Source: a virus. Taken from it: DNA of 30,143 bases. The stretch is taken from positions 1 to 30,143 of the IMG/VR virus record IMGVR_UViG_3300049433_000053, one strand, 5' to 3'. Under the pieces are notes generated by a model, which saw only the letters and a program-made list of their open reading frames with translations, was not told the DNA's origin and searched no databases. The translations under genes and the position numbers were made by a program. Shown here piece by piece: positions 1-23,677 of this stretch. Every line of letters starts with the position of its first letter. Position 1 is the first letter of the stretch.

Positions 1-251
1 GGCTCTCCCTGGACCTCCAGGAGGAGCTGCTTGCACGGGGAGTCCTTCGACGCTTCGAACTGAAGGGCGCTCTCCTTGACGGCCTGACGGCCCTCCCAGT
101 ACAGGGGCTCACCCGTCTTCATGTCGGTGCGCTGGGTGACGCGGAAGGAGAGCACGGTGCCCTCTACGACCGCTCCCACCTTCGGGAACTTGGCAGCTAC
201 CGAGCTGCCGGACAGGAACTGCTTGACCTCGCTGAACGGGTCGATCGCCAT
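1..251 (-). CDS. SSB-like / OB-fold-type hypothetical protein, cut by the window edge
   Basis: The minus-strand frame starts with ATG at 251 behind a GAAAGG ribosome site and stays open for 83 codons to the left edge, so the C-terminus is missing. The protein begins MAIDPFSEVKQFL. It then has the stretch VGAVVEGTVLSFRVTQRTD, followed by a K-T-G-E-P-x-Y-W segment. A strand-rich start of this kind (G-x-V-V-x-G-x-V) resembles OB-fold single-strand DNA-binding proteins found near replication genes in actinophages. I infer an ssDNA-binding or replication-accessory role from this resemblance and from the nuclease and helicase genes upstream in the same leftward block. No catalytic motif is visible. 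The identity is uncertain, but the coding call is strong because of the ribosome site and GC-rich third positions. Confidence 0.75.
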   Translation of the reverse strand, partial: MAIDPFSEVKQFLSGSSVAAKFPKVGAVVEGTVLSFRVTQRTDMKTGEPLYWEGRQAVKESALQFEASKDSPCKQLLLEVQGE

Positions 252-383
252 GATGCGTGTACCTTTCTGCCTGTTTTCCTGTGAAACGAGCGGCCCCGGC
301 CGGACCACCATCCGACCGGGCACCCTCGCCGCCCCTAGTGGAGGACTTGCGTCCGCTCCCGTTTCTGAGGCGGGGCAGTCGCC
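252..383. other. non-coding leader between the tRNA-like element and the left-edge gene
   Basis: No convincing gene is seen here on either strand. On the minus strand it forms the leader of the left-edge gene. It contains a small hairpin (GGAC-TTGC-GTCC near 342-353), an actinobacterial-looking TAGGGG hexamer on the minus strand near 334-339, and the purine-rich ribosome site next to position 251. Processing of the tRNA-like element upstream could release this mRNA. That is inference. Confidence 0.4.
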
Positions 384-489
384 GTGAAGGGCCGGGATTC
401 GAACCCGGATCGTCCTCGGATACCGGTTGGGGTCCGGTCCTCGGGGCTCTAGCCATCCCCCACCCACAGGGGTTGAGCTACACCTTCGC
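384..489 (-). tRNA. tRNA-like element with an enlarged D-loop and irregular arms (structure suggests anticodon CCC)
   Basis: Read on the minus strand, it has an intact T-arm with the B-box-like GGTTCGAATCC flanked by a 5-bp CCGGG/CCCGG stem. It has a GTAGCTC...TAGAGC D-arm and an acceptor-like pairing of GCGAAGG with CCTTCAC (one C-A mismatch). A 5-bp ACCGG/CCGGT stem closes a 7-base loop, ACCCCAA, which would give anticodon CCC. Several things are wrong for a normal tRNA. It is about 30 bases too long. The D-loop holds an extra 16 to 17 bases that could form their own CCCC/GGGG hairpin. The joining segments on both sides of the anticodon arm are too long. Position 33 would be C instead of the near-universal U. 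It may be a structurally deviant tRNA, a decayed pseudo-tRNA, or a tRNA-derived processing signal. Functional charging is doubtful. Confidence 0.45.
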
Positions 490-554
490 CACGTTTTACG
501 ACCGCCGTCGTGGGGTCAATCGTAGTGCGGATTAGCTAAATCCCCTAGCGGGAC

Positions 555-1841
555 TCAGCCTGCCTTTTCCTCCAGGGACGCGAGGTGATCCTGCATCCGC
601 TTGATCACCGTGTTGAAGCGCGTCTGGCCGATCTTCTGCACCTGCGGGCGCATCTCCTGGTACAGGGCGGACGCTTCCGCCCGGGTGCTGATCCGGTCGG
701 CCCGTTCCTCCCACGTCGGCTTACGGGGGGCCGGGGGCGTATCAATGGCGAGGGCGGGCTGTACGACCGCCTGTCCGGTAACGGACGGGTAGTCGGCCAG
801 TTGTGCAGCCGTGGGCCTGTCGAAGCCGGAGGAGGGCGCCTGTTGCTCCGTCACCTCCACCGGCGCCGGTACAGCAGTCGGCTGGTCCACGATCTCCAGC
901 GGGGCGGCGAGCTGCTTGGCCTTCCGCCACTTCCGAACCTTCATGCAGAGTTCCAGGGCCTGCCAGCCCTGTTCCAGGTCGACCGCGTACAGCACGCACG
1001 CGGGGGCGCCCGCCTTCTTCTGGATCGGAAGGTGCACCACGATGCCGACGTCTTCCCGGACCGTGCTGGGCATCGGCCCGTCGGTGCCTTCGGACGCTCC
1101 GAGCGGCAGCAGGTCCCACTCCTTGCCCTCCGGGTCCCAGATGCCGTGTTCGTTGATCGCGTGGGCGTAGATCGCCTCCTGGATCGCGATCTCCCCCCAG
1201 CCGTACGACAGGTCCCGACCGGTCTTCAGGTCGCCGATGACGTGCTCACCGGCCTTCAGGTGCAGCACCCGCTTGTCGGCCATCTTCAGATCGACGTCCC
1301 GCGTCGCCCGATACACCCGGTCGAACGTCCCGGCGATCCCCTCGGAGGAAGCGGTCGTCACCACCCGCTTCTCGATCATCTGCGGGACGATCTCCAGCCC
1401 GTACGCCTGGAGAGCGGCGCTGTACGCATCCACGTCGCTGCGCATCGTCGGCGGGATGTTGGGCTTCTGGCCCTGGTCCACGGCTGCGGTGAAGGCGTGC
1501 ATGGCGGTGCCCAGGTTGGCGGCGACCTTGTCCCCCGCCGCCGCCCGCGACTGCTCGCAGACCGCGTTCAGGTCGTCCTTGTCGGCGGACACGTCGTACC
1601 CGCAGGCCAGGGCGTACAGGTCGGGCCGCATCGTGAGGCCCTTCACCGCCATGCGCTGCTGCCACATCGACAGGGCGAAGGTGTCGGCGACCGACTTGGC
1701 GATGGTCGTGGCGCGGGACCAGGGCTGCGTCTGGCCGGTGTCCGGGTGCGGCAGCAGGTACCGTCCCCAGCGGTCCCGGGGAACGTCGTTGCTGGCCGGG
1801 GGCTTGCTGTTGACGAACGCGGTGGCCGGGTTACTGCTCAC
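555..1841 (-). CDS. PD-(D/E)XK exonuclease, RecB/Cas4-like (alternative internal GTG start)
   Basis: Starting at GTG 1841, which overlaps the last codons of the small zinc-finger gene, gives a 428-residue protein. Its N-terminus (DRWGRYLLPHPDTGQTQPWS) is what phage members of this nuclease family usually begin with. Nuclease core: G-T-A-M-H near residue 115, the acidic residue in G-T-F-D-R-V near 174, the D-L-K motif in V-I-G-D-L-K-T-G near 204-206, and a downstream Gln (QEAIY) near 221. Together these are the RecB/Cas4 signature H...D...D/ExK...Q. The protein probably acts on DNA ends in phage recombination or replication, partnered with the SF2 helicase in the same block. The C-terminal 150 residues are Pro/Ala/Gln-rich and less conserved-looking. 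The nuclease assignment is firm. Whether translation starts here or at 2555 is open. Confidence 0.7.
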   Translation of the reverse strand: MSSNPATAFVNSKPPASNDVPRDRWGRYLLPHPDTGQTQPWSRATTIAKSVADTFALSMWQQRMAVKGLTMRPDLYALACGYDVSADKDDLNAVCEQSRAAAGDKVAANLGTAMHAFTAAVDQGQKPNIPPTMRSDVDAYSAALQAYGLEIVPQMIEKRVVTTASSEGIAGTFDRVYRATRDVDLKMADKRVLHLKAGEHVIGDLKTGRDLSYGWGEIAIQEAIYAHAINEHGIWDPEGKEWDLLPLGASEGTDGPMPSTVREDVGIVVHLPIQKKAGAPACVLYAVDLEQGWQALELCMKVRKWRKAKQLAAPLEIVDQPTAVPAPVEVTEQQAPSSGFDRPTAAQLADYPSVTGQAVVQPALAIDTPPAPRKPTWEERADRISTRAEASALYQEMRPQVQKIGQTRFNTVIKRMQDHLASLEEKAG

Positions 1842-2555
1842 TGAGCCAGTCTTCGAAGCAGTCGGCATGGACGTAGTCTCCGTTCCCGACCCCACGGATG
1901 AGGTCTCCTTCGTCGATCGGCTCGTAGCACTGGTAGCACTCGCCGCCGTACCCGGCGTAGAACTCTGGGCCGTAGTCGGGGCCCCGGTCGTCTCCGGTGA
2001 TGAAGGCGGTTGCGTCTTGCCCGCCTGCCGGGGCCACGTCCTGATGACGTCGGCCGCCTTGCTGTCCTGCCATGATCCGTCTCCTGCCGTCGCCACGTCG
2101 CTCCCGCCGCCCTGTGCGGCCCACCACTGCTCTTCCGTCCATCCCTGCGCCAGCGCCTCCACCTTGCCGGTCGGCAGGGGAGCGCGGTACGGGTTGGGTC
2201 CGAGTGACTCCATCACCGACTTGATCTTTTCACCGGGCATATCTCGGACCCCGTGCGTGGTGGCCATGTTGAGCACTTCTTCGGCTGCCGCCATCACTTC
2301 GTCCGGGATGTACGGGGAGAGCATCGCCAGTTCGGCGTCCCGTACGTCCTGCTTCGTCGGCTGGAAGGTGACAACCCCGCACACGGCGCACACCGGGGAG
2401 TCGGCGAAGTCGTGGTCATGCTTGGGCCAGTCGCTCCCGCCGGGGCAGTGTGGGTTTTCCTCGCTCGCACGCTTGCCGTTGGCGGCATGGGAGCGGACGC
2501 GCCCGTTCGCCGTCAGGGACAGGTCGGTGCGAGTGCATCGGCTGCATTCAGCCAC
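555..2555 (-). CDS. long composite reading frame: zinc-binding N-terminal module joined in frame to a RecB/Cas4-like PD-(D/E)XK nuclease
   Basis: The GTG start at 2555 sits behind a good GGAGAG site and overlaps the end of the upstream gene by 8 bases. The frame stays open for 666 codons. Residues 1-65 hold zinc-ligand pairs (CSRC, then a C, then CAVCG). Residues 70-160 look like a normal globular protein. Residues about 175-238 are unusually Ser/Thr/Pro-rich and coincide with a separate, better-looking frame (1831-2073). From residue 239 on, the sequence is a typical phage RecB/Cas4-family nuclease. Third-position GC suggests that coding switches out of this frame near 2005 and returns near 1841. 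This may therefore be two genes with a third between them, joined only because no stop codon falls in frame. Alternatively it is a true fusion with a linker. I see no canonical slippery site. Reading through to a 666-residue protein is possible but not established. Confidence 0.5.
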   Translation of the reverse strand: MAECSRCTRTDLSLTANGRVRSHAANGKRASEENPHCPGGSDWPKHDHDFADSPVCAVCGVVTFQPTKQDVRDAELAMLSPYIPDEVMAAAEEVLNMATTHGVRDMPGEKIKSVMESLGPNPYRAPLPTGKVEALAQGWTEEQWWAAQGGGSDVATAGDGSWQDSKAADVIRTWPRQAGKTQPPSSPETTGAPTTAQSSTPGTAASATSATSRSTKETSSVGSGTETTSMPTASKTGSVSSNPATAFVNSKPPASNDVPRDRWGRYLLPHPDTGQTQPWSRATTIAKSVADTFALSMWQQRMAVKGLTMRPDLYALACGYDVSADKDDLNAVCEQSRAAAGDKVAANLGTAMHAFTAAVDQGQKPNIPPTMRSDVDAYSAALQAYGLEIVPQMIEKRVVTTASSEGIAGTFDRVYRATRDVDLKMADKRVLHLKAGEHVIGDLKTGRDLSYGWGEIAIQEAIYAHAINEHGIWDPEGKEWDLLPLGASEGTDGPMPSTVREDVGIVVHLPIQKKAGAPACVLYAVDLEQGWQALELCMKVRKWRKAKQLAAPLEIVDQPTAVPAPVEVTEQQAPSSGFDRPTAAQLADYPSVTGQAVVQPALAIDTPPAPRKPTWEERADRISTRAEASALYQEMRPQVQKIGQTRFNTVIKRMQDHLASLEEKAG
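1831..2073 (-). CDS. small CxxC...HxxC zinc-finger protein, nested out of frame in the nuclease ORF
   Basis: ATG at 2073 is preceded by a strong purine-rich site (GGCAGGAGACGG). The 80-residue product contains GGECYQCYEPIDEGDLIRG followed by YVHADCFEDW, a C-x2-C ... H-x2-C zinc-finger pattern common in small actinophage proteins. From about position 2010 to 1840 this frame has strongly G/C-ending codons, while the overlapping long frame there is Ser/Thr-rich and has mixed third positions, so this frame looks like the coding one. The stop (1831-1833) overlaps the nuclease's alternative GTG start, which favours translational coupling. Its function is unknown. Zinc-mediated nucleic-acid or protein binding is likely. 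Confidence 0.7.
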   Translation of the reverse strand: MAGQQGGRRHQDVAPAGGQDATAFITGDDRGPDYGPEFYAGYGGECYQCYEPIDEGDLIRGVGNGDYVHADCFEDWLSEQ

Positions 2556-2937
2556 GGTGCTCTCCAGTCTCTTCGATCTTGCTCACCAGCAGTACGAGCT
2601 TTCCGTCACTGCCGGTCCTGAGGTTCATACGATACTGCCCGGGGTCCACCGGCGGCCCGCTGAGGGACGTCAGATGCCGGTGGAGCGCGCACGTCTCCAG
2701 GGTGCCGCCGATCCGCTCCCTCAGCGGGTGGGCCAGGGTGAAGCCTCCCACCTCATGGAACGTACCGATGTGGCCCTGTTCCGGGGATTCACTGAGTAGG
2801 TTGCTCACTGAGTCGGGCATCGGACACACGCTGTCCGCGCAGGTGACGTAGCCGCCCTCCCCGAGGAAGAGCGTCTCCCCGCAGCCCATCGGGCAGAAGC
2901 CCTGTACTTTCTCTCCTTGATCACGGATGAATGGCAT
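2548..2937 (-). CDS. zinc-ribbon protein, DUF6085-like
   Basis: This 129-residue protein opens MPFIRDQGEKVQGFCPMGCG. It has two Cys pairs (C-P-M-G-C and C-A-D-S-V-C), a zinc-ribbon arrangement, followed by a short His-containing stretch (HIGTFHEVGG, CALHRHL) and a basic tail. The F-C-P-M-G-C-G-E-T-L-F opening recalls a family of small Streptomyces phage proteins, so I name it DUF6085-like with moderate certainty. Its 3' end overlaps the start of the next gene by 8 bases, so the two are probably coupled. A plausible GAGAGGAGAAAG ribosome site lies just upstream of the start. The molecular role is not known. Confidence 0.8.
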   Translation of the reverse strand: MPFIRDQGEKVQGFCPMGCGETLFLGEGGYVTCADSVCPMPDSVSNLLSESPEQGHIGTFHEVGGFTLAHPLRERIGGTLETCALHRHLTSLSGPPVDPGQYRMNLRTGSDGKLVLLVSKIEETGEHRG

Positions 2938-2950
2938 GATCTTTCTCCTC

Positions 2951-3418
2951 TCACAGACAGGTGGACCGCAGGGTCCGGCCGGTCTTCTGCCAGCGCTCCA
3001 GGCGCGCGATGGTCTCGCGCAGTGCGATTTTCATGTCCTCCAGGTCCGGGTCATCGAACCGGGCTTCCCGACGGTCCCCGTAGTCGGCCATCTCGTCTCT
3101 CGGGGGCCACTCAATCGGCCCGTACTTCTCCAGCTTCTCCAGGGTCGTACGGGCGCGGGACAGTACGGCCCGCAGTTCGGTGAGGGCTTCCCCGCTGTCG
3201 CGGCCCCGGTCGGCATAACGAGCACGGGTGCGCAGGTTCAGGTCTGTCTTGCGGGCCCGGTCCGCGCACCTGCACCGGTCATGGTCACAGCTCCTCAGCA
3301 CGGTGAGGTTGCGCCTGCCGCCCTCCACGTACGCACCGATGCCGTGTTCCTCGTGCCCACAGTTCTCACACGGCGGGTTGCCCCCGGCCGACACCCGGGC
3401 CATCTCGACGATGCTCAC
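2951..3418 (-). CDS. small Cys/His-containing protein with helical C-terminus
   Basis: I choose the GTG at 3418. It forms a GTGA overlap with the helicase stop and has GAGGAAGG about 8 bases upstream. The product is 155 residues. The N-terminal third has two cysteine pairs (PPCENCGHEEHG and a later C-D-H-D-R-C-R-C cluster), consistent with zinc binding. The remainder is charged and probably helical (ALTELRAVLSRARTTLEKLE, and a final IALRETIARLERWQ). No enzyme motif is visible. The position directly downstream of the helicase gene suggests a replication or recombination accessory, which is inference only. Another possible start is the in-frame ATG at 3403. Confidence 0.75.
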   Translation of the reverse strand: MSIVEMARVSAGGNPPCENCGHEEHGIGAYVEGGRRNLTVLRSCDHDRCRCADRARKTDLNLRTRARYADRGRDSGEALTELRAVLSRARTTLEKLEKYGPIEWPPRDEMADYGDRREARFDDPDLEDMKIALRETIARLERWQKTGRTLRSTCL

Positions 3419-5076
3419 TGCCCCGCCTTCCTCATCCATCCGTCGAACTTCTGCGCGGCCTTGGCCACGCTGATCGCGTCGGACAGCTCTCCCTTGCGGG
3501 GAGTCTCGCCGACCGCCACACCGTACGACCGGGCGAAAGCGATCTGGCGGGGCTCCGCCTTCCGCTTCCTCCAGCCCGCATCCTTCATGCCGTTGAACGG
3601 CATCCGGTCTTCTGCCTCGGTCTCCGCCCATGCCTGCGCGGTGCCGAGCTGCATGCCCCTGTGCAGACGCTCCCACTTGCCGTGCGGCGGGGCGTAGCAG
3701 ACATCCCAGGTGCCCTCCTTATCCGGCCATACGAAGATCTCTTCGTTGGCGACCGGGATGAACATGACCCCGGCCGGGGTGCGGAGCCAGGCGTGCGACG
3801 ATGCCTGGAAAAGATCGATGTCCCGGTGCTTGAGGTTGAAGGCCACGTGGTCCGCCGTGACGACCGTGTTGCCCTCCTCCTCCTCCCGGACCGCCGCATC
3901 CGCCAGCGACTCGTCTCCCCGGAACGACGTCACCTCTCCCGGTGCTAGGTCGATCAGCGTGGACAGCCGCCCGCCGACGCCGGTGACGTCCAGCACCAGG
4001 CAGTTGGTCTTGCCCGGCCACGGCCGCAGCCCGCGCCCCACCATCTGGATGTACAGAGTCGGGTTGGTCGTCGGCCGGGCGTTGACGACACAGTCAGCCC
4101 AGGGGAAGTCGGCTCCCTCGGTCAGCACCATGCAGTTGACGATGGCCCGCAGCTCCCCGGTCCGGTACTGCCGGTAGATGTCCAGCCGCTCACCGCGCGG
4201 GGTCGTACCGTCGATCGTCGCTGCGGGGATACCGGCCTGGATCAGAGCCAGAGTCGTTTCCCTCGCAGAGGCGACGTCCGGCAGGAAGACGATCGGCCGC
4301 CGGTCGGCCGCGTAGGTGAGGATGCTGCGGGCGACGATCCGGGGCCCATCGGCCGCGATGATCGCGCGGCCGAGATCCTTCGCCTGGTAGTCGCCCCCGG
4401 AGCGCTTCACGTCCCCGAGGTGCAGGTGGTCCAGGTCGACCGCTTTGCCCCGGACGTCGGTGAGATAGCCCCGACTGATCATCCACAGCACGGACCGCTT
4501 GAACACGACGTCTTCCCAGACGTCCCCCAGGCCCACTCCATCGCCGCGTGCGAGGGTAGCGGTGACCCCGAGAGCCCGGGTACCGGCAGGGGTGCCCTCC
4601 AGCTCGGTGAAGCAGCCGAGATCGGTCATGATGTCCCGGTAGCTCTGCGCGGCAGCGTGATGCGCCTCATCCACGATCACGAGACCGATGCGGCCGAAGT
4701 GTCGTTGTCCGGCCAGGAGCCGCCGCATCCGGGCTTCCCGGGCAAGCGTCTGGACCGAGCACACCATCACGTCGCAGTGGATCTCGTTGTCGGCCGCCTT
4801 CACCTTGCCGACCATCAGCCCGGGGGCGACAGCGCGGATCTTGGCAATGGCCTGGTCGGCGAGCTCGTCACGGTGCACGAGGATGACGACCCGGTGAGGG
4901 TCGCCCGCCCGGCGTCTGGTGTCGACGAACTTCTGCGTGATGTGCGAGAAGATCACTGTCTTGCCGGACCCGGTGGGGAGCACGACGGCCGGGCGCTGGA
5001 TTCCGTTGTCCCACGCCCCCCACACCGCGTCGTTGCACTCGGCCTGGTAGTCACGCATCCTCAGTTCGGTGCTCAT
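3415..5076 (-). CDS. superfamily 2 DEAH-box DNA helicase
   Basis: The start at ATG 5076 is supported by AAGGAG eight bases upstream and by an ATGA overlap with the preceding gene's stop. The 553-residue protein has the SF2 motifs in order: Q-like region RMRDYQ, Walker A PTGSGKT at residues 34-40, Walker B VDEAHH around 135-140, motif III T-A-T-L, and motif VI QMVGRGLRPW. It has the compact RecA1-RecA2 layout of RecG/RecQ/RAD3-like phage helicases. It probably unwinds or remodels DNA during early replication or recombination, possibly with the RecB-like nuclease of the same leftward operon. The C-terminal ~130 residues (DLFQASSHAWLRTPAG onward) form a tail typical of these phage helicases and have no motif I can name. 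Confidence in the family is high. Confidence 0.95.
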   Translation of the reverse strand: MSTELRMRDYQAECNDAVWGAWDNGIQRPAVVLPTGSGKTVIFSHITQKFVDTRRRAGDPHRVVILVHRDELADQAIAKIRAVAPGLMVGKVKAADNEIHCDVMVCSVQTLAREARMRRLLAGQRHFGRIGLVIVDEAHHAAAQSYRDIMTDLGCFTELEGTPAGTRALGVTATLARGDGVGLGDVWEDVVFKRSVLWMISRGYLTDVRGKAVDLDHLHLGDVKRSGGDYQAKDLGRAIIAADGPRIVARSILTYAADRRPIVFLPDVASARETTLALIQAGIPAATIDGTTPRGERLDIYRQYRTGELRAIVNCMVLTEGADFPWADCVVNARPTTNPTLYIQMVGRGLRPWPGKTNCLVLDVTGVGGRLSTLIDLAPGEVTSFRGDESLADAAVREEEEGNTVVTADHVAFNLKHRDIDLFQASSHAWLRTPAGVMFIPVANEEIFVWPDKEGTWDVCYAPPHGKWERLHRGMQLGTAQAWAETEAEDRMPFNGMKDAGWRKRKAEPRQIAFARSYGVAVGETPRKGELSDAISVAKAAQKFDGWMRKAGQ

Positions 5077-5549
5077 GACCCACACTCCTTCGTCGGGCAC
5101 GACTCCCGGCGTCCGAGGTGGTGCCAGACACCCCGCCTCTGGTCGGTGTACAGGTGGCTGTCGCCATTGCCGAGGCTCTTGCGGAACGACTCCCACAGGG
5201 CGGTGGCGAGCTCCTTGCACTCGGGGAGCTCGCAGTGGTAGATGACCCCCGGGTGCTCCCAGACGCTCCCGGCCCCGTCGTCGTACGTGTGCACGGTGCC
5301 GGTGACCAGGTTCCGGAAGACGGTGGCCGCACGGATCACCTGGTCCAGGGATTCCACCAGCTCGTCTTCCGAAGACGACGACACCGCCCGCAGGGTCTCC
5401 ACGAGCAGGTTGAGGGCCGGGGCCGGGGTGCCGGATGCCTTCGTGACGGTCTGTACGGCGATCGCCCGGCGTGCCGTCTCGCTGTAGGTTCGGCCCAGCA
5501 GGTTGGGGCCCTGCCGCAGGCCGTAGGCGTCGCGCTTCTCCAGGTTCAT
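5073..5549 (-). CDS. hypothetical protein
   Basis: 158 residues starting at ATG 5549, overlapping its neighbours by 4 bases on both sides (ATGA). The N-terminus (MNLEKRDAYGLRQGPNLL) is followed by a mostly helical central region (ALNLLVETLRAVSSSSEDEL, then DQVIRAATVFRNLV). The C-terminus has a Cys/His-bearing stretch (YHCELPECKELA and later C-P-T-K-E-C) that could bind a metal. I do not recognise the family. The tight coupling to the helicase gene suggests co-regulated early expression. Confidence 0.75.
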   Translation of the reverse strand: MNLEKRDAYGLRQGPNLLGRTYSETARRAIAVQTVTKASGTPAPALNLLVETLRAVSSSSEDELVESLDQVIRAATVFRNLVTGTVHTYDDGAGSVWEHPGVIYHCELPECKELATALWESFRKSLGNGDSHLYTDQRRGVWHHLGRRESCPTKECGS

Positions 5550-7081: not shown

Positions 7082-7714
7082 ATCAAGGCAATAGAAACTC
7101 GATATGCCGGATGCCGGTTCAGGTCCCGGCTGGAGGCACGATGGGCGGTGTTTTTCGATACGCTCGGTGTCGAATGGGAATACGAATCTCAGGGATTCGA
7201 AATTCCTGAGCGTATATTTCGAAAGCCCACTCGGTATCTCCCGGATTTCTGGCTCCCGACAATGAATGTCTATGCGGAAGTAAAAGGAACTCTGGACCAG
7301 GATTCCACTGAACGTCTCCTCAATTCGGCGGCTGTCCTGTCGTCTCCCGAAGGGGGCTGCGGAGGAGGTCATGACCTGGTGGTTCTAGGCCCGATACCCA
7401 AGGCTGAACCAGCATTTCAAGCAGTATACGGAGCAACCGATGTCCCCAGTCTTCTCCATATGCACAAAGGGGATCTCTTCGTGTCCCCCTGGAGGCAGAT
7501 CAACTACGGTAGCAATTCATGCCCGGCTTACTCGATAGAGGCATTCCGCGTAGCCAATGATGCGGAAGGCTGGGAGCCAGGATACGGTTCAGAGTGGGGA
7601 CCTGTAATTCTCAAAGGATTTACTGCGGGAACGCATCGTGTGAGTTCGGGTTCGTTCATCCGGGGATACGGGGCCGCACGGTCGGCGAGGTTCGAACATG
7701 GAGAGAGGGGCTGA
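7073..7714 (+). CDS. PD-(D/E)XK nuclease-like protein, copy 2 (AT-richer paralogue)
   Basis: 213 residues from GTG 7073, which is placed correctly behind GGAGAGAGGGG. An ATG at 7055 would start inside that ribosome site. It has the same core as copy 1: conserved Glu in R-S-R-L-E-A-R-W-A-V-F-F, PD in R-Y-L-P-D-F-W-L, and ExK in Y-A-E-V-K-G. The middle of the gene is distinctly AT-richer than all neighbours, with many A/T third bases (for example the run at 7180-7290). Its two ends keep the phage's own composition through the direct repeats. This suggests that the interior came from elsewhere and recombined in through the conserved ends. The C-terminal half differs from copy 1, so specificity may differ. 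Confidence 0.85.
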   Translation: MTEIKAIETRYAGCRFRSRLEARWAVFFDTLGVEWEYESQGFEIPERIFRKPTRYLPDFWLPTMNVYAEVKGTLDQDSTERLLNSAAVLSSPEGGCGGGHDLVVLGPIPKAEPAFQAVYGATDVPSLLHMHKGDLFVSPWRQINYGSNSCPAYSIEAFRVANDAEGWEPGYGSEWGPVILKGFTAGTHRVSSGSFIRGYGAARSARFEHGERG

Positions 7715-7724
7715 AGTGACGGAG
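7672..7724 (+). repeat. 53-bp direct repeat, copy 2 (nuclease cassette boundary)
   Basis: Second copy of the repeat described at 7029-7081. It carries the end of the copy-2 nuclease gene, the ribosome site and the GTG start of the primase-polymerase gene. Homologous exchange between the two copies would delete or add one complete nuclease gene without disturbing the neighbouring starts and stops. Confidence 0.9.
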
Positions 7725-10700
7725 CGGGAGCACGACAGGGCGCCGGAGGAATCCGGCGCTGATGTGTCTGGGGAGACGAATGGCGCGGTAGCGGCACGCG
7801 GGGTGATGGCGGAACTGGAGGAGAGCGAAGAGCGGGGCATGCGGGAGGAGCCTGCGAAGGTGACGCCTCCCCGGCCACCGGCCGACGTCTCCCCGGTGCA
7901 CCACTCCGAGCTGCTCGGGTCGGTCATCAGTGAAGAGCAGATGGCGGCACGCGGGTACCGCACGCTGTACGGATCGGAGGAGGACCAAGCAGGACTCAAG
8001 GAGATCCGCATCCCGAGGTGGGCATGGCGGGACGACACCGCGTTTCCCGGGCTGCTCATCCCGATGTACCGGGTGACCGGGGAGCGCATCGGGTACCAGT
8101 GGAAGCCCGCCACCCCGCAGGAGGCGCCGGGCGGCAAGCGGGAGAAGTACGCGAGCCAGAGCGGCACCCCCAACCGGCTGGACGTACCCCCGTCGTGCTC
8201 GGACGCGGTCCGGGACCCGAGCGTGCCCCTGTGGGTGACCGAGGGGGTGAAGAAGGCGGATGCGCTGTGCTCCAAGGGGCGCGCGGTCATCACCCTCACC
8301 GGGGTCTTCAACTGGCGGAGCAAGCTGGGCACGCTCGGGGACTGGGAAGACATCCCGCTCCGGGGCCGCACCGTCGTGGTCTGCTTTGATGCGGATGCCC
8401 GCGACAAGCGGAACGTGCTGCTCGCCATGCGGCGCCTCGGGATGTGGCTGGAGTCGAAAGGCTGCGCCGACGTCCGGTACCTGATCGTCCCGGCGGAGGT
8501 CAACGAAGTCCAGGTCAAGGGCGTCGATGACTACTTCGCTGCCGGTGGCACGATGGAAGACCTCGGGGCTGCCGCCATGCGGGAGCTGCCCGCCGACGGA
8601 GCACAGGATGCCGCGTTCAGCGATGCGGTGCTGGCGGACACGGTCTGCCGGGAGGAGCTGGACGGCCGGTTCTGCTGGGCTTCAGGTCTCGGGTGGATGA
8701 CGTGGACCGGGAAGATATGGGAGGGCGCGACCGACGCCACCGTGACGGAAGCGGTACGGCTGTGGGCGCTCGAAGCCTTCAACCGGGTGCTCGACCGGCA
8801 GCGGCAGGACCACAACCGGGACATGCGGAGTCAGATGGACGGCTGGCGCGGCGTGCTGTCGGCCGGTCGGCTCGGCGCACTGGTGCGCCTCGCGCGGGGC
8901 GTGCTGGAGTGCAAGCCGGACGACTTCGACAACGACCCCGACATGTTCAACTGCCCGAACGGCATCCTGGACCTGCGGACCGGCGAACTCCAGCCGCACG
9001 ACCCCGACCAGTTCATGACGAAGATCGCCGGGGCAGACTACGTCAAGGGGGCCACGCACCCGGACTGGGAGACGGCTCTGCTCGCGCTCCCGGAGGAAGT
9101 ACGCTCCTGGTTCCAGCTCCGGGCCGGACAGGCCATCACCGGTCACATGACCCCCGACGATCTGGCGATCATCTGCCAGGGCGGTGGAGCCAACGGGAAG
9201 AGCACAATCTCGGATGCGCTGGCGGAGGTGGCCGGGAAGTACCACGTGGTGGTGAGCGACCGGGCGATGCTCGGGGGCGCGAGCGACAACCACCCGACCG
9301 AGATGATGGACTTCATGGGCGCCCGGTACGCGGTGCTGGAGGAGACGCCGGAGAGCCGTCGGCTGGACACCAACCGGCTGAAGAAGCTCACCGGTACGAG
9401 GGAGATCACCGCCCGGCGCATCCGGCAGGACAGCGTGACGTTCGAAGCGACGCACAGCCTGTTCGTGAACAGCAACTACCGGCCGGTGGTGGACGAGACC
9501 GACCACGGCACATGGCGGCGCCTCGCGCTGGTGAGGTTCCCCTTCACCTTCCGCAAGAGCCAGGAAGAGGTCAGAGGGCCCCAGGACCGCCTAGGAGACC
9601 CGACCCTGCGCCAGAGGGTGAAGACCGACCCGCAAGTGCGCGAGGCGGTGCTTACGTGGATGGTGGGGGGTGCTCAGCGGTGGTACGACCTGTCGATGGT
9701 GATGCCCGAGCCTCCGCAGGCGGTGGCGGACGACACCAAGGCATGGCGGCTGGAGAGCGACCCCATCCTGCACTTCATCGAAGACAGCCTGATGTTCGAT
9801 CTCGACCGGCACGTGGGAGCGACCGAGCTGCGCGAGCGGTTCAACGGATCCCTGCGGGAGCGCGGCGGCAAGGAGTGGGGCGAGAAGACGTTCGCAGCCC
9901 GGTTCGGCGGTCACGACCTGACGGCTCAGAACAACGTCGAACGGCGCAAGGTGAAGCGTTCGGCCGCCCTCTCCTCGCTCCGCCCGGAGACCGTTCCGGC
10001 GGGTTCCTACTACGCCTGGCTTGGAGTCCGGTTCCAGGCGCCCGAGGAGGGATTCAGCGGTCCAGATAGCGAGACGACCCAGAATCCGTTCGGCGACGGC
10101 CCATGTAACTCTCCGGAATCGACCCCAGGTCAATCACCGGAGGCTCCCTCCGGTTCCGTCAGTTCCGTCACGTTCTTTAACGAGAATTCTCCCCATACAC
10201 GAGGGGTTATAGATCGTGACGGAACTGACGGAACCGGAGAGATTCCTCCGCTTACAGACCATGATCAAAGTGATGGGGAAACCATGATCGAAGACGCGGT
10301 GGACTTCATGTCCGCCGACCCCTTTGCCGAACCGGCCGCCCCTGTGGCGGAGGAGCTGTCCCCCGTGCCCGCAGAGGTGCCCGTGGAGTCGGGTGCGGAC
10401 CCCTCCCGTCCGAACGCTCTGACGGGCTTCGACGCATCCGGCGAAGTCGGGTTCGACCTGGAGACCGCCGACGCCAGCACGATGTTCACGTACGGGCCCG
10501 GGTTCGTCCGGATCGGCGGGCTCATCAACGAGCGGGGGGAGACGGCCACCGGTTCCGACATCAAGGCCCTGGTGGACAAGCTCAACGCCGCCGACGTGGT
10601 GTACGGCCACAACATTCTCGGATTCGACGGACTGGCCCTGGCCTACTGGCACGGTCTCGACTGGGAAGCCTTCTGCGCCAAGGCGGTCGACACCGACCCC

Positions 10701-12161
10701 CTGTCCCGGCAGGCCCACCCCCCGCGCTCCCGTGGAAAATCCTCCATCGACGAGTACGACCTGAACCACGTTGCCGCCCGTTACGGGCTGGAAGGCAAGA
10801 CCGACGACATCAAACGGCTGAAGACCAAGCACGGCGGGTACGACAAGATCCCGCTGGACGACCCCGAGTACCACGGTTACCTGGTGGGCGACGTGAGGGC
10901 TTCCCGCCACGTCCGGAAGATCCTGCCGGAGACCGACTACACCACCCGTGAGCACAAGATCGCCGCCATGATGGGCCGGATGACCCTCAACGGTTTCAAG
11001 GTGGACCGGGAGCTGCTGGACACCCGGTACCGGGAGGGGCAGGAGCGCAAGAAGGCGGCTGAGCAGGAGCTGTCCGATGCCCATGGGCTCCCGCTCGGCA
11101 GGATGGTCAATCGGGGCCGGGGTGCCGCCAAGCACCAGGTCTTCGAACCGGCCGCCTCCCCCCTGGCTACCGGCGAGGGGATCGAGTGGCTGAAGAACCT
11201 CTGGGAGCAGTACGGCGTCAACAAGCCTCCCCGCACCGAAGGTGGTCGGCTGTCGACGAAGGCGGAGCTGCTGAAGCTGGTCGCCGAACACCCCAAGTGC
11301 CCACCCGAGCTGTCTCACGTGCTCAACCTGATGGGGATCATCACCACCACCCGGACGGTCTACGCCACCACCCTGACCTACCTCGCCGCCGACGGCCGGG
11401 TGCACCCGAAGGTGTCGATGCGGCAGGCGTCCGGCCGGGCCAGCGTCACCGAACCGGGCATGACGGTCTACGGCAAGCACAATGGACGCCACCACGAACG
11501 GGAGATCTTCGTACCGGACGCCGGTGAGGTACTGATCACCTGCGACGCCAGCCAGGTCGACATGCGGGCGATCGCCGGACACTGCCAGGATCCGAACTAC
11601 ATGGCGATGTTCGCCGCAGGTCGTGACGCCCACTCCGAGATCGCTCTTCAGGTGTTCGGCTCGGCCGACTTCCGGCAGAACGCCAAGGCGATCGGTCACG
11701 GCTGGAACTACGGCCTGGGTGCACGGAAGATGATCGAAGACGGTCACGACCCCGAGCTGGTGCGCACCTTCATGAGTGGGATGGCGGAACGCTTCCCCCG
11801 GCTGATCGAGTGGCGGGAGGAGATCCGGGCACAGGGTGGCCGGGGCGAACTGCTCGACAACGGGTTCGGCCGGATGATGCGCTGTGACCCGCACTTCGCC
11901 TACACGGTGGCCACCGCCCTCATGGGTCAGGGCGGCGCACGGGATCTCGTGTTCGACGCCATGCTGAGGCTCCCGCAGAGCTACTGGAAGTATCTGCGCA
12001 CCTTCGTGCACGACGAGATCGTGATGAGCGTTCCGGCGGAGCAGGCGGATGAGGTCATGGCCCGGGTGAAGGACGCGTTCACCACGGTGTGGAGGAACGT
12101 GCCGATCCTCGCCGACACCACCGGCCCGGCCGCCAACTGGGGGGAGGCGAGTGTCAAGTGA
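7716..12161 (+). CDS. fused primase-helicase and family A DNA polymerase
   Basis: The GTG at 7716 (GGAGAGAGGGG upstream) opens an uninterrupted frame of 1481 codons. Residues about 70-290 match the DUF3854 primase-associated TOPRIM-like domain, including the P-L-W-V-T-E-G-V-K-K-A-D and V-V-V-C-F-D-A-D-A motifs. Residues about 300-770 form a D5/SF3 helicase with Walker A GGGANGKST near 488-496. After a low-GC3 linker of about 110 residues comes a polymerase I-like part with an intact 3'-5' exonuclease: exo I F-D-L-E-T, exo II N-I-L-G-F-D-G, exo III Y-L-V-G-D-V. The polymerase motifs follow: A T-C-D-A-S-Q-V-D, B R-Q-N-A-K-A-I-G-H-G-W-N-Y-G, C F-V-H-D-E-I-V. A possible internal start is ATG 10284 behind GATGGGGAAACC, so the polymerase may also be made alone. 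Since no stop separates the halves, a fusion product is expected unless the sequence carries an error. Confidence 0.9.
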   Translation: MTEREHDRAPEESGADVSGETNGAVAARGVMAELEESEERGMREEPAKVTPPRPPADVSPVHHSELLGSVISEEQMAARGYRTLYGSEEDQAGLKEIRIPRWAWRDDTAFPGLLIPMYRVTGERIGYQWKPATPQEAPGGKREKYASQSGTPNRLDVPPSCSDAVRDPSVPLWVTEGVKKADALCSKGRAVITLTGVFNWRSKLGTLGDWEDIPLRGRTVVVCFDADARDKRNVLLAMRRLGMWLESKGCADVRYLIVPAEVNEVQVKGVDDYFAAGGTMEDLGAAAMRELPADGAQDAAFSDAVLADTVCREELDGRFCWASGLGWMTWTGKIWEGATDATVTEAVRLWALEAFNRVLDRQRQDHNRDMRSQMDGWRGVLSAGRLGALVRLARGVLECKPDDFDNDPDMFNCPNGILDLRTGELQPHDPDQFMTKIAGADYVKGATHPDWETALLALPEEVRSWFQLRAGQAITGHMTPDDLAIICQGGGANGKSTISDALAEVAGKYHVVVSDRAMLGGASDNHPTEMMDFMGARYAVLEETPESRRLDTNRLKKLTGTREITARRIRQDSVTFEATHSLFVNSNYRPVVDETDHGTWRRLALVRFPFTFRKSQEEVRGPQDRLGDPTLRQRVKTDPQVREAVLTWMVGGAQRWYDLSMVMPEPPQAVADDTKAWRLESDPILHFIEDSLMFDLDRHVGATELRERFNGSLRERGGKEWGEKTFAARFGGHDLTAQNNVERRKVKRSAALSSLRPETVPAGSYYAWLGVRFQAPEEGFSGPDSETTQNPFGDGPCNSPESTPGQSPEAPSGSVSSVTFFNENSPHTRGVIDRDGTDGTGEIPPLTDHDQSDGETMIEDAVDFMSADPFAEPAAPVAEELSPVPAEVPVESGADPSRPNALTGFDASGEVGFDLETADASTMFTYGPGFVRIGGLINERGETATGSDIKALVDKLNAADVVYGHNILGFDGLALAYWHGLDWEAFCAKAVDTDPLSRQAHPPRSRGKSSIDEYDLNHVAARYGLEGKTDDIKRLKTKHGGYDKIPLDDPEYHGYLVGDVRASRHVRKILPETDYTTREHKIAAMMGRMTLNGFKVDRELLDTRYREGQERKKAAEQELSDAHGLPLGRMVNRGRGAAKHQVFEPAASPLATGEGIEWLKNLWEQYGVNKPPRTEGGRLSTKAELLKLVAEHPKCPPELSHVLNLMGIITTTRTVYATTLTYLAADGRVHPKVSMRQASGRASVTEPGMTVYGKHNGRHHEREIFVPDAGEVLITCDASQVDMRAIAGHCQDPNYMAMFAAGRDAHSEIALQVFGSADFRQNAKAIGHGWNYGLGARKMIEDGHDPELVRTFMSGMAERFPRLIEWREEIRAQGGRGELLDNGFGRMMRCDPHFAYTVATALMGQGGARDLVFDAMLRLPQSYWKYLRTFVHDEIVMSVPAEQADEVMARVKDAFTTVWRNVPILADTTGPAANWGEASVK
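10148..10239 (+). repeat. 25-bp perfect inverted repeat with tandem 9-mers in the primase-polymerase linker (possible origin or operator)
   Basis: The arms 10148-10172 and 10215-10239 are perfect reverse complements. Each arm contains two head-to-tail copies of the 9-mer GTTCCGTCA (10153-10161 and 10162-10170; inverted copies at 10217-10225 and 10226-10234). The 42-base spacer is AT-rich. It holds the palindrome GAGAATTCTC (10182-10191), a CCCC/GGGG mini-hairpin and a TATAGA hexamer at 10208-10213. Iteron-like 9-mers around an AT-rich core fit a replication origin or an operator/promoter for the polymerase part. A terminator is unlikely, as there is no T-run. Confidence 0.85.
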
Positions 12162-21442: not shown

Positions 21443-23677
21443 ATGACCACCGATGCGCAGCAGATCGCCAAGCAGGCTGCCGATCTGCTGCGCATGTACG
21501 GTGAGTCGGCCGGACGCTGGGCACCGCGTCCGCACCAGATCCCTCCCCCGTCCGGGTTCTACGGCTGGCTGCTGATGGCGGGGCGCGGCGCCGGTAAGAC
21601 GGACGCCTGCGCTAAGTACGTCGTGGACCACGTCAAGGGTCCGGCCTGCCTCAAGGGCGACACCCCTCACTGGATCGGGATCATCGCCCCCACCCTCGGC
21701 GATGCAGCCACCTCGTGCTTCTCCGGTCCGTCCGGGATCAAGGCGCACGACCCGTCCGCCAAGATGGTGAACACGATCGGCGGCACGATCATCCGGTGGC
21801 CGAACGGCAGTGAGGCGAAGCTGTTCGGCGCCAACACCGAAGAGGACACCCAGCGTCTCCGGTCCGGCGGTAACCGTTGTGTTGTTGAGGGCACGATGGT
21901 GCGTACTGCACGAGGGGAAGTTCCCATTGAGGAAGTAGTCCCCGGGGACAGGGTGTGGACTCGGAACGGCCTGCGTAAGGTGCTCAAGGTCTGGGATAAC
22001 GGGATCAAGGAAGTACGCCGATACGATCACGAAGCTGGATCGACTTGGATGACTCCGGATCACCAGGTGTGGACTGATCGGGGGTGGGAACAAGCCTCGC
22101 TTGTCTCGACAAGCGATACAGTGTTTACATGGCCGACTTCATCGAATATGACGGTGCTCGCTGGTATCCGAACAAGCGCGATCCCTACTACCGCAACAGT
22201 CGTAGAGGACTACTGCATCGATGGATGTATCTGCGCGAAGTCGGACCGATACCTGGCAGAGCGCAAGTCCACCACCGGAACCACGACAAGCGTGACAACC
22301 GTGTGGAAAACTTCGTGCTTCTCTCCCCCGGAGACCATTGGCACGAACACGGTACGGAGCGAGGCGACGACTGGCACAGCAAAGGTGGTCGTGCGACGTG
22401 GGCCAGCGCGGAGTACCGCGATTTCACCTGTGAGCGGTGCGGCGCATCGTTCCGTTCCCGAGGTACGACAGGGGCCCGGTACTGCTCCCCCCATTGTCGT
22501 GAGGCGTCGGCTCCTTCACGGGCACGGGAAGAACGGGTGTGTTGCGTGTGCGGCGCACGGTTCGAATCCCAGAAACGGTCTTCGACACGTACCTGTTCAC
22601 GGCGGTGCACTTCGGTCGTCGCATACGAGTCGCGTCGCAAGGGTGTATGACCTCACGGTCGAGCATGATCACGAGTTCTTCGCTGACGGGCTGCTCGTTT
22701 CCAATTGCCTGCAATGGCTGGAGGAGATCGCCGCGTGGCGGTATCTCGACTACGCCTGGAACCAGATGCGGTTCGGCCTGCGCGTCGGCCCGCATCCGCA
22801 CTGGATCGGCTCCACCACCCCCAAGCCCCGGCAGCTCATCAAACGGCTGGACCGGGGCGATATCGCCAACGTCGTCATCACCCGCGCGACCATGTACGAC
22901 AACCCCCACCTGCCCGCCGACATCCGGGAAGCGCTGGAGGAGGAGTACGGCGGTACCCAGCTCGGCCGTCAGGAACTGCTCGGCCAGCTCATTGATGAGG
23001 ATGAGCAAGCTCTCTGGAACCACCGCACGATCGATGCGGCCCGCGTCCCCAAGAAAGACCTGCCGGAGTTCGGCCGGATCTCCGTCGGGGTGGACCCGTC
23101 CGGCGGTGCCGGTGAGCAGGGCATCGTGGTCGCCGCCCGGTCCAAGCTCATCCTGCCGCCGACCGTGATGCCCGAGGTGGAGGGGATCGAGATCCCGGGG
23201 TCCGACCGGCCGAACAAGCACGGGTACGTGCTGGACGACCGCACCGTCCACCTGTCCCCCGACGGATGGGGCAAGGCCGCGATCCTGGCCGCTGTGGACT
23301 GGGAGGCTGACGAGATCTTCGTGGAGACGAACTACGGCGGGGCCATGTGCGTGTCGACGCTCCGCACGGCGGCCGAAATCAAGGGAGTCAACATCCCGAT
23401 CAAGGTCGTCACCGCCACCCGGGGCAAGAAGGTTCGGGCGGAGCCGGTCAGCGCGCTCACGAGCCAGGGCCGCTGGCACCACGCCGGTACCTTCGAAGCG
23501 CTGGAGGACCAGATGTGCACGTGGCACGATGACCTCGGCTGGAGCCCCGACCGGCTGGACGCGGCGGTGTGGAACGGGTGGGGGCTGCGCCTCGCGCACC
23601 TGCTGTCCGGCGGTCAGGGCTCGATCGGCGGGGGCGCCATGTCCAAGAAGATCACGCCAGGACGGGGTGCCTACTGA
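21443..23677 (+). CDS. terminase large subunit (TerL) interrupted by an intein
   Basis: 744 codons from ATG 21443. N-extein: Walker A (A-G-R-G-A-G-K-T) near residues 48-54. The intein spans residues 146-421. The C-extein begins C-L-Q-W-L-E-E-I-A-A-W, where the acidic pair is the Walker B/catalytic Glu of the packaging ATPase. The nuclease domain follows: V-G-V-D-P-S-G-G (first metal aspartate), F-V-E-T-N-Y-G-G (glutamate) and D-R-L-D-A-A-V-W (last aspartate). Splicing would give a 468-residue TerL, normal length for this family. It translocates and cuts phage DNA at the portal. Its ribosome site is weak (GAGAGA), perhaps compensated by coupling to the preceding gene. Confidence 0.95.
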   Translation: MTTDAQQIAKQAADLLRMYGESAGRWAPRPHQIPPPSGFYGWLLMAGRGAGKTDACAKYVVDHVKGPACLKGDTPHWIGIIAPTLGDAATSCFSGPSGIKAHDPSAKMVNTIGGTIIRWPNGSEAKLFGANTEEDTQRLRSGGNRCVVEGTMVRTARGEVPIEEVVPGDRVWTRNGLRKVLKVWDNGIKEVRRYDHEAGSTWMTPDHQVWTDRGWEQASLVSTSDTVFTWPTSSNMTVLAGIRTSAIPTTATVVEDYCIDGCICAKSDRYLAERKSTTGTTTSVTTVWKTSCFSPPETIGTNTVRSEATTGTAKVVVRRGPARSTAISPVSGAAHRSVPEVRQGPGTAPPIVVRRRLLHGHGKNGCVACAAHGSNPRNGLRHVPVHGGALRSSHTSRVARVYDLTVEHDHEFFADGLLVSNCLQWLEEIAAWRYLDYAWNQMRFGLRVGPHPHWIGSTTPKPRQLIKRLDRGDIANVVITRATMYDNPHLPADIREALEEEYGGTQLGRQELLGQLIDEDEQALWNHRTIDAARVPKKDLPEFGRISVGVDPSGGAGEQGIVVAARSKLILPPTVMPEVEGIEIPGSDRPNKHGYVLDDRTVHLSPDGWGKAAILAAVDWEADEIFVETNYGGAMCVSTLRTAAEIKGVNIPIKVVTATRGKKVRAEPVSALTSQGRWHHAGTFEALEDQMCTWHDDLGWSPDRLDAAVWNGWGLRLAHLLSGGQGSIGGGAMSKKITPGRGAY
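22098..22115 (+). repeat. 8-bp hairpin before the nested HNH gene
   Basis: CGCTTGTC (22098-22105) and GACAAGCG (22108-22115) form a perfect hairpin with a 2-base loop that ends 13 bases before the HNH start codon. It lies inside the intein coding region. It may control HNH translation or mark the edge of the inserted gene. Confidence 0.6.
22129..22650 (+). CDS. HNH homing endonuclease nested out of frame inside the TerL intein
   Basis: 173 residues from ATG 22129, in a frame one base behind the intein frame. HNH core: P-I-P-G-R-A-Q-V-H-H-R-N-H-D-K-R-D-N at residues 41-57 and P-G-D-H-W-H near 67-72, the His-Asn-His geometry. Two zinc fingers follow (C-E-R-C ... C-S-P-H-C, then C-C-V-C ... C-S-R-R-C), probable DNA-binding modules of mobile endonucleases. 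The stop (22648-22650) lies inside the codons for the first residues of the intein's C-terminal block. There is no clear ribosome site; a hairpin precedes it. It probably drives homing of the intein. Confidence 0.85.
   Translation: MADFIEYDGARWYPNKRDPYYRNSRRGLLHRWMYLREVGPIPGRAQVHHRNHDKRDNRVENFVLLSPGDHWHEHGTERGDDWHSKGGRATWASAEYRDFTCERCGASFRSRGTTGARYCSPHCREASAPSRAREERVCCVCGARFESQKRSSTRTCSRRCTSVVAYESRRKGV

What the first reader, a model, noticed from the sequence alone, without database searches (positions are those of the whole stretch)
1831..2555. Zinc-finger gene nested in, and possibly splitting, the RecB-like nuclease frame
In the 666-codon frame the piece at 1841-2010 is Ser/Thr-rich and poorly coding, while an 80-codon frame in the same DNA has a strong ribosome site, a CxxC/HxxC finger and GC-ending codons. 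The nuclease has its own GTG at 1841 overlapping the small gene's stop. Either three genes are packed with overlapping frames and one lost its stop, or the N-terminal module is truly fused to the nuclease with an overlapping gene in the linker.
Basis: seen in the sequence. Interest (0 to 1): 0.7.

Follow-up and report, generated by a model that had tools for sequence, protein, structure and literature searches.

The report
Zinc-finger gene inside a nuclease linker
In this actinobacterial virus a small zinc-finger gene is written in a second reading frame inside the flexible linker of a larger DNA-cutting enzyme, and related viruses keep both messages, so one stretch of DNA very likely makes three proteins.

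Summary
On the minus strand, frame 555-2555 (666 codons) joins a zinc-ribbon module (A) to a RecB/MGME1-like nuclease (C). An 80-codon zinc-finger gene (B, 1831-2073) lies inside the A-C linker in the -1 frame. In 21 of 21 contigs with nested B, A and C share one open frame, B sits in the same relative frame, and an AGGAG/GGAGG site lies 5-8 nt before B's start. In 20 of 21 a C-frame ATG/GTG overlaps or adjoins B's stop. Substitutions follow B's codon rhythm, although B's wobble base is the main frame's second base. In seven other contigs the same finger is fused in frame with C. I read this as a true A-C fusion with a nested gene in its disordered linker, plus internal re-initiation of a short nuclease: products A-C, B and C. 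A programmed frameshift and a sequencing error are disfavoured. The kind is known (phiX174 A/A*/B, lambda Rz/Rz1); this instance, with a finger that is either nested or fused, appears undescribed in the papers I could search. Expression and function are untested.

The parts
555..2555 (-). A-C: 666-codon fused frame, zinc-ribbon module A + linker + PD-(D/E)XK nuclease C
   Evidence: open in 21 of 21 nested contigs; phrog_466 exonuclease E=5e-73
2394..2555 (-). conserved core of module A (C..C...NGR.RSH...C.GGSDWPKHDH)
   Evidence: alignment A1; 19 loci found with it
2548..2555 (-). GTGGCTGA: start of A-C overlapping the stop of the upstream DUF6085 gene
   Evidence: sequence; DUF6085 E=5e-30
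2081..2085 (-). AGGAG Shine-Dalgarno site of B, 7 nt before its ATG
   Evidence: site kept in 21 of 21 nested contigs, in two different main-frame phases
1831..2073 (-). B: 80-aa zinc-finger protein nested in the -1 frame inside the A-C linker
   Evidence: phrog_1581 E=6e-7 and phrog_28043 E=1e-6; model core pLDDT about 90
1831..1841 (-). GTGAGCAGTAA: C-frame start codon overlapping B's stop
   Evidence: equivalent start in 20 of 21 nested contigs
555..1841 (-). C: short nuclease form (428 aa) from the internal GTG
1167..1322 (-). nuclease motifs D174, D204-x-K206, Q221-x3-Y225 (C numbering)
   Evidence: invariant in 21 of 21 C sequences, alignment A7
2548..2937 (-). upstream gene, DUF6085 (129 aa)
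3415..5079 (-). upstream SF2 helicase (same strand); start inferred
   Evidence: ResIII 1e-24, Helicase_C 7e-16; phrog_16 DNA helicase 1e-86
3..263 (-). downstream gene D, cut by the contig end (MAIDPFSEVKQFLSG...)
   Evidence: phrog_1911, unknown function, 1e-8

Best explanation
One locus encodes three proteins. (1) Ribosomes that start at GTG 2555 read through to 555 and make A-C, a zinc-ribbon module tethered to a RecB/MGME1-like nuclease by a disordered Thr/Ala/Ser/Pro linker. (2) A second set starts at the AGGAG + ATG inside the linker and makes B, an 80-aa treble-clef-like zinc finger, in the -1 frame. (3) At B's stop, ribosomes re-initiate on the overlapping GTG 1841 and make C, the nuclease without A. 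Shown by comparison: both frames are open, B evolves as a protein, and B's ribosome site and C's start codon are kept. Inferred: that all three proteins are made, and their ratio. Also inferred (weaker, about 0.4): B is a DNA-end or DNA-break reader that works with the nuclease in phage replication or recombination. It resembles PARP-1 Zn2 in fold, it is fused to C in other phages, and it is a free gene near a Cas4-type exonuclease in mycobacteriophages.
For: A and C in one stop-free frame in the window and in 19 of 19 A-module loci, and in the 6 further nested loci. B always in the same relative frame, 21 of 21 nested contigs. AGGAG/GGAGG 5-8 nt before B's start in 21 of 21, lying in two different main-frame phases, so kept as DNA and not as protein. 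C-frame start at -8 to +4 nt of B's stop in 20 of 21, with differing B C-termini. Substitutions over B in 9 disjoint sister pairs: b1 99, b2 100, b3 160; b3 versus b1 P=2e-4. Open main frame and C start both more frequent than synonymous randomisation gives. Finger fused in frame with C in 7 contigs. Free-standing B near a Cas4-type exonuclease in mycobacteriophages. Stand-alone nucleases start near where the internal start lies. C fold: MGME1 Z 14.3 over 198 residues. B fold: PARP-1 Zn2 Z 5.7, rmsd 1.4 over 49 residues.
Against: No expression data of any kind. L036 has no C-frame start near B's stop, and L022 has A-C with no B, so neither B nor the short form is universal. Four-fold sites in B diverge only moderately less than in C (0.264 versus 0.347), so the linker's residues are under weak constraint and the fused product is supported mainly by frame openness. 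The backbone of the C tree is unresolved, so the 21 contigs are not 21 independent events. B's similarity to PARP fingers is not significant by sequence (E 0.69), ties with RING and C1 fingers in structure, and Pfam gives no family above its cut-off.
Confidence: 0.78

Rival explanations
1. Three separate genes A, B and C; the A-to-C open frame is an accident of high GC content and A-C has no function.
For: High-GC DNA has long chance frames. Over B alone the main frame is often open by chance (P 0.16-0.91 per locus). B's frame carries the stronger constraint.
Against: A separate A gene needs a stop, and none of 21 nested contigs has one in A's frame. Product P(open) over 14 representatives is 1.4e-5. 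A-B-C is one frame in 4 contigs and A-C in L022.
Confidence: 0.12
2. Programmed -1 frameshift: ribosomes slip from A into B's frame and make an A-B protein, as in dnaX.
For: B is exactly in the -1 frame, and B's stop is the first stop after such a slip.
Against: No conserved slippery heptamer: 16 of 20 loci have none, the other 4 have GGGCCC-type ones at scattered places. In L042 and L060 the B frame is closed by a stop 9 nt before B's start. B has its own ribosome site in 21 of 21.
Confidence: 0.04
3. Sequencing or assembly error, or a recent lost stop, in the window.
For: The window is a single virus record of 30143 bases.
Against: 20 other contigs have the same arrangement, among them a complete plasmid of Streptomyces sp. 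S1D4-14 and two Streptomyces isolate contigs.
Confidence: 0.01
4. B is a mobile out-of-frame insertion (ShiLan type) that parasitises the nuclease gene.
For: Out-of-frame genes nested in phage enzymes are published for actinobacteriophages (PMC11855218, abstract and section 4.3 read). L022 has A-C without B.
Against: B shows no HNH or other homing-nuclease profile. It is kept across four clades with a ribosome site, unlike ShiLan, and the same finger is a fused domain elsewhere.
Confidence: 0.03

Closest known systems
phiX174 genes A / A* / B (recalled)
   Same: A large DNA-acting protein, a short form from an internal in-frame start, and a second gene nested in another frame
   Different: Double-stranded DNA tailed-phage-type genome; the nested product is a zinc finger that other relatives carry as a fused domain
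lambda Rz/Rz1 nested spanin genes (PMC6139136, search listing only; nesting in lambda recalled)
   Same: Small gene nested in another frame inside a larger gene; the two products work together
   Different: No short in-frame form; lysis, not DNA metabolism
Mycobacteriophage Ms6 lysA, second endolysin embedded in frame (PMC3111421, search listing only)
   Same: Short form of an enzyme from an in-frame start inside the long one, in an actinobacteriophage
   Different: No extra protein in a second frame
ShiLan out-of-frame HNH insertion (PMC11855218, abstract and section 4.3 read)
   Same: Actinobacteriophage, nested out-of-frame gene that leaves the host frame open
   Different: Homing endonuclease insert with no detectable ribosome site; B has one and shows no homing-enzyme profile
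MGME1 / RecE / AddAB / Cas4 PD-(D/E)XK nucleases
   Same: Fold (MGME1 Z 14.3) and D / DxK / QxxxY motifs
   Different: No conserved cysteines for an Fe-S cluster; zinc-ribbon module tethered in front
PARP-type zinc fingers (PARP-1 Zn2)
   Same: C-x2-C ... H-x2-C and treble-clef-like model, rmsd 1.4 over 49 residues
   Different: No significant sequence match; RING and C1 fingers score alike

Membership tests
Nested (fully contained) overlapping gene | whole gene inside another gene, different frame, same strand | tested here: met
   21 of 21 nested contigs
Nested (fully contained) overlapping gene | own initiation signal | tested here: met
   AGGAG/GGAGG 5-8 nt upstream, 21 of 21
Nested (fully contained) overlapping gene | protein-level selection on the nested frame | tested here: met
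   b1 99, b2 100, b3 160 substitutions in 9 disjoint pairs
Nested (fully contained) overlapping gene | nested protein is made | not testable with these tools
   no expression data
PD-(D/E)XK nuclease of the RecB/MGME1 group (C) | D, DxK and QxxxY motifs | tested here: met
   D174, D204, K206, Q221, Y225 invariant in 21 of 21
PD-(D/E)XK nuclease of the RecB/MGME1 group (C) | fold | tested here: met
   MGME1 Foldseek E 3e-5; Z 14.3, rmsd 3.7 over 198
Cas4 proper | four conserved cysteines binding Fe-S (feature recalled) | tested here: not met
   no invariant or nearly invariant Cys in alignment A7
PARP-type zinc finger (zf-PARP) | match to the family profile | tested here: not met
   no zf-PARP hit for any of 31 members at E<=1
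PARP-type zinc finger (zf-PARP) | fold | tested here: inconclusive
   Z 5.7 with rmsd 1.4 over 49, tied with RING and C1 domains
Programmed -1 frameshift | conserved slippery heptamer and open -1 frame upstream | tested here: not met
ShiLan-type out-of-frame homing element | homing endonuclease domain in the nested frame | tested here: not met

The most novel reading that the evidence does not exclude
A frame-switching protein domain. The same zinc finger reaches the same nuclease in cis (fused in frame) in some phages and in trans (from a gene hidden in the -1 frame of the linker) in others, while the flanking modules stay in one frame. The nested form lets one mRNA set the ratio of tethered nuclease, free nuclease and finger.
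Probability: 0.5. Interest if true: 0.72.

Novelty: new variant of a known kind. Interest (0 to 1): 0.6.

Why it matters
The nested gene appears to be missed by annotation: the gene table of plasmid pS1D4-14.2 lists only the 1137-aa 'hypothetical protein' (that table is known to be incomplete). It is an unusually clean natural case of dual coding in a disordered linker: 21 contigs, four clades and in-frame fused counterparts, so how a domain moves between frames becomes testable. It also points to a zinc-finger partner of a widespread phage exonuclease family (465 phage records match the window's frame, over the nuclease part in the 60 rows listed).

Tried and rejected
Slippery-site frameshift: rejected. 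Lost stop or sequencing error: rejected. B in known isolated phages: the window's B finds only 19 Mycobacterium records at E<=0.01 and L032's B none; the window's A module finds none of 50,697 records. A regex for the finger found nothing in the fetched stretches of eight annotated phages with the nuclease (L011, L012, L073-L078), so I could not show a non-nested B-then-C ancestor. The C tree does not resolve whether nested or fused came first. The Foldseek search with B gave no match at E<=0.001. Paper searches that found nothing on this locus; some searches gave only general or comparator papers.

Full report
ANATOMY. On the minus strand of the window, frame 555-2555 has 666 codons. Codon 1 is a GTG that overlaps the stop of the preceding DUF6085 gene (GTGGCTGA). 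The first part (module A) has zinc-ribbon motifs; the last 428 codons are a nuclease (C). Between them, frame 1831-2073 reads 80 codons in the -1 register (B), with AGGAG seven bases before its ATG and a C-x2-C ... H-x2-C finger. A C-frame GTG at 1841 overlaps B's TAA.

RELATIVES. Scans of IMG/VR with B, the whole frame, the A part, module A (alignment A1) and the B family (alignment A5) gave loci L002-L006, L014-L032 and L035-L071. A genome scan gave two Streptomyces isolates (NRRL S-455 and S. africanus), whose contigs have the same lengths as those of L025 and L029. L002 is the 98,815-bp linear plasmid pS1D4-14.2 of Streptomyces sp. S1D4-14. Sorting the 29 contigs in which C was found together with A or B: B is nested in 21 (window included), fused in frame 0 in 7 (L014, L019, L023, L028, L048, L055, L067), and absent in 1 (L022). 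Of the 37 loci, 15 are nested, 6 fused (L056, a contig end, counted with L055), and 16 show B with no C on the same strand within the fetched stretch. The loci were found through A, B or the whole frame, so nucleases without A or B are not represented here.

THE FRAME IS NEVER BROKEN. In the window and all 19 loci the A module lies in the same stop-free frame as C; the six extra nested loci agree by coordinates (the A hit of L047 is weak, 37 bits). This rejects 'one gene lost its stop' and 'sequencing error'. In all 21 nested contigs B is in the same relative frame.

B IS A GENE WITH ITS OWN START. AGGAG or GGAGG lies 5-8 nt before B's start in 21 of 21. In the main frame this site falls in two different codon phases (CAG GAG and GAG GAG against GCA GGA G and ACG GAG G), so the DNA and not the main-frame peptide is kept. 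Over B, substitutions in 9 disjoint sister pairs are 99 at b1 (main base 3), 100 at b2 (main base 1) and 160 at b3 (main base 2); b3 against b1, P=2e-4. In 50 closer pairs the rates are 0.170, 0.186 and 0.254, against 0.158, 0.122 and 0.294 by codon position in C. B thus shows its own coding rhythm on bases that the main frame should hold fast. Amino-acid identity in the sister pairs is 0.72 in B's frame and 0.65 in the main frame. The main-frame residues over B are 75% Thr, Ala, Ser, Pro and Gly, as in a disordered linker.

C HAS ITS OWN START TOO. A C-frame ATG/GTG lies between -8 and +4 nt of B's stop in 20 of 21; L036 is the exception. It is kept although B's C-termini differ (CGDD, CGG, SEQ, GRA, ADD). 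Counting only starts in the last 9 nt, 17 of 20 loci have one against 4.0 expected from random synonymous codons, and 11 of 14 representatives against 2.4 (P=3.5e-10). The same randomisation leaves the main frame open over B with a product probability of 1.4e-5 over 14 representatives. Relatedness makes both values too small. Of six annotated stand-alone nucleases from Streptomyces, Corynebacterium and Gordonia phages, five begin roughly 20-50 residues before the start of the conserved fold and one (L076) about 80; in the window the internal start lies 25 residues before it. So C is probably a complete enzyme; its first 17 residues are predicted disordered.

WHAT THE PARTS ARE. C matches phrog_466 exonuclease (5e-73) and folds like MGME1 (Foldseek 3e-5; Z 14.3 over 198 residues), with RecE, AddAB, Cas4 and Dna2 behind. 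D174, D204, K206, Q221 and Y225 are invariant in 21 of 21, and no cysteine is, so it is not Cas4 in the strict sense, although relatives are annotated so. B matches phrog_1581 and phrog_28043, both of unknown function; the finger fused in L004 matches phrog_1581 (2.6e-6) and, weakly, phrog_28043 (0.011). The B model (core pLDDT about 90) resembles PARP-1 Zn2 (Z 5.7, rmsd 1.4 over 49 residues), tied with RING and C1 fingers; sequence support is not significant (E 0.69). Upstream on the same strand is an SF2 helicase, and at 7698-12161 on the plus strand a primase/DNA polymerase, so the setting is DNA replication or recombination. In mycobacteriophages Agent47, Aminay, JF1 and Edugator a B relative is a free gene one or two genes downstream of a Cas4-type exonuclease.

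MECHANISM. Shown by comparison: two open frames, protein-level selection on B, kept start signals for B and C. Inferred: translation of A-C, B and C from one mRNA, with re-initiation of C at B's stop. Inferred more weakly: B brings or licenses the nuclease at DNA ends. The fused relatives (L048, L067: B then C; L014, L019, L023, L028: A, B, C; L055: B ahead of C) are 'Rosetta stone' evidence that B and C act together.

RIVALS AND LIMITS. Frameshifting is disfavoured: there is no conserved slippery site, and a stop lies 9 nt before B's start in L042 and L060. A purely accidental A-C frame remains possible but needs 21 contigs without a stop. The C tree has four well supported nested clades and an unresolved backbone, so one origin is possible and the order nested-to-fused is open. 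No expression evidence exists here.

NOVELTY. Nested genes and internal starts are known kinds: phiX174 A/A*/B (recalled), Rz/Rz1 (PMC6139136, listing only), Ms6 lysA (PMC3111421, listing only), ShiLan (PMC11855218, abstract and section 4.3 read). I found no paper on this locus. The unusual point is a conserved domain that is nested in some phages and fused in others.

Noticed in passing
window 21443-23677 (+) and 22084-22650 (+): The terminase large subunit carries an in-frame Hint/intein-like insert (Hint_2 5.7e-7), and inside it, in another frame, an HNH_3 endonuclease ORF (2e-12): an out-of-frame homing nuclease in an intein, close to the published ShiLan idea.
   Followed up: partly
L018 7135-8145; L015 about 7836-8043: The nuclease C of L018 holds an in-frame insert of about 1 kb with a LAGLIDADG_3 hit (2e-8), probably an intein; L015 has a shorter unmatched stretch without a hit.
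   Followed up: partly
window 3-263 (-), 1831-2073 (-), 1800-1841 (-); L002, L003, L042, L044: B, C and the next gene D share a short N-terminal motif (DPF or DAF, often followed by FLxGG), as if several operon proteins carried one docking peptide.
   Followed up: no
L055 and L056 (both ends of IMGVR_UViG_3300029951_000013): Two near-identical copies of B lie at the two ends of one contig, which may be a terminal repeat or a circular join.
   Followed up: no
window 381-495 (-): A tRNA-like stretch (T-arm-like GGTTCGAATCC) between C and D; ARAGORN calls no tRNA in the window.
   Followed up: partly
L053, L054, L058, L059, L064, L066, L071: Another group of free-standing B relatives with a CSHYEC ... 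EHK[ED]NEDAR ending, with no nuclease C found in the fetched stretch.
   Followed up: no
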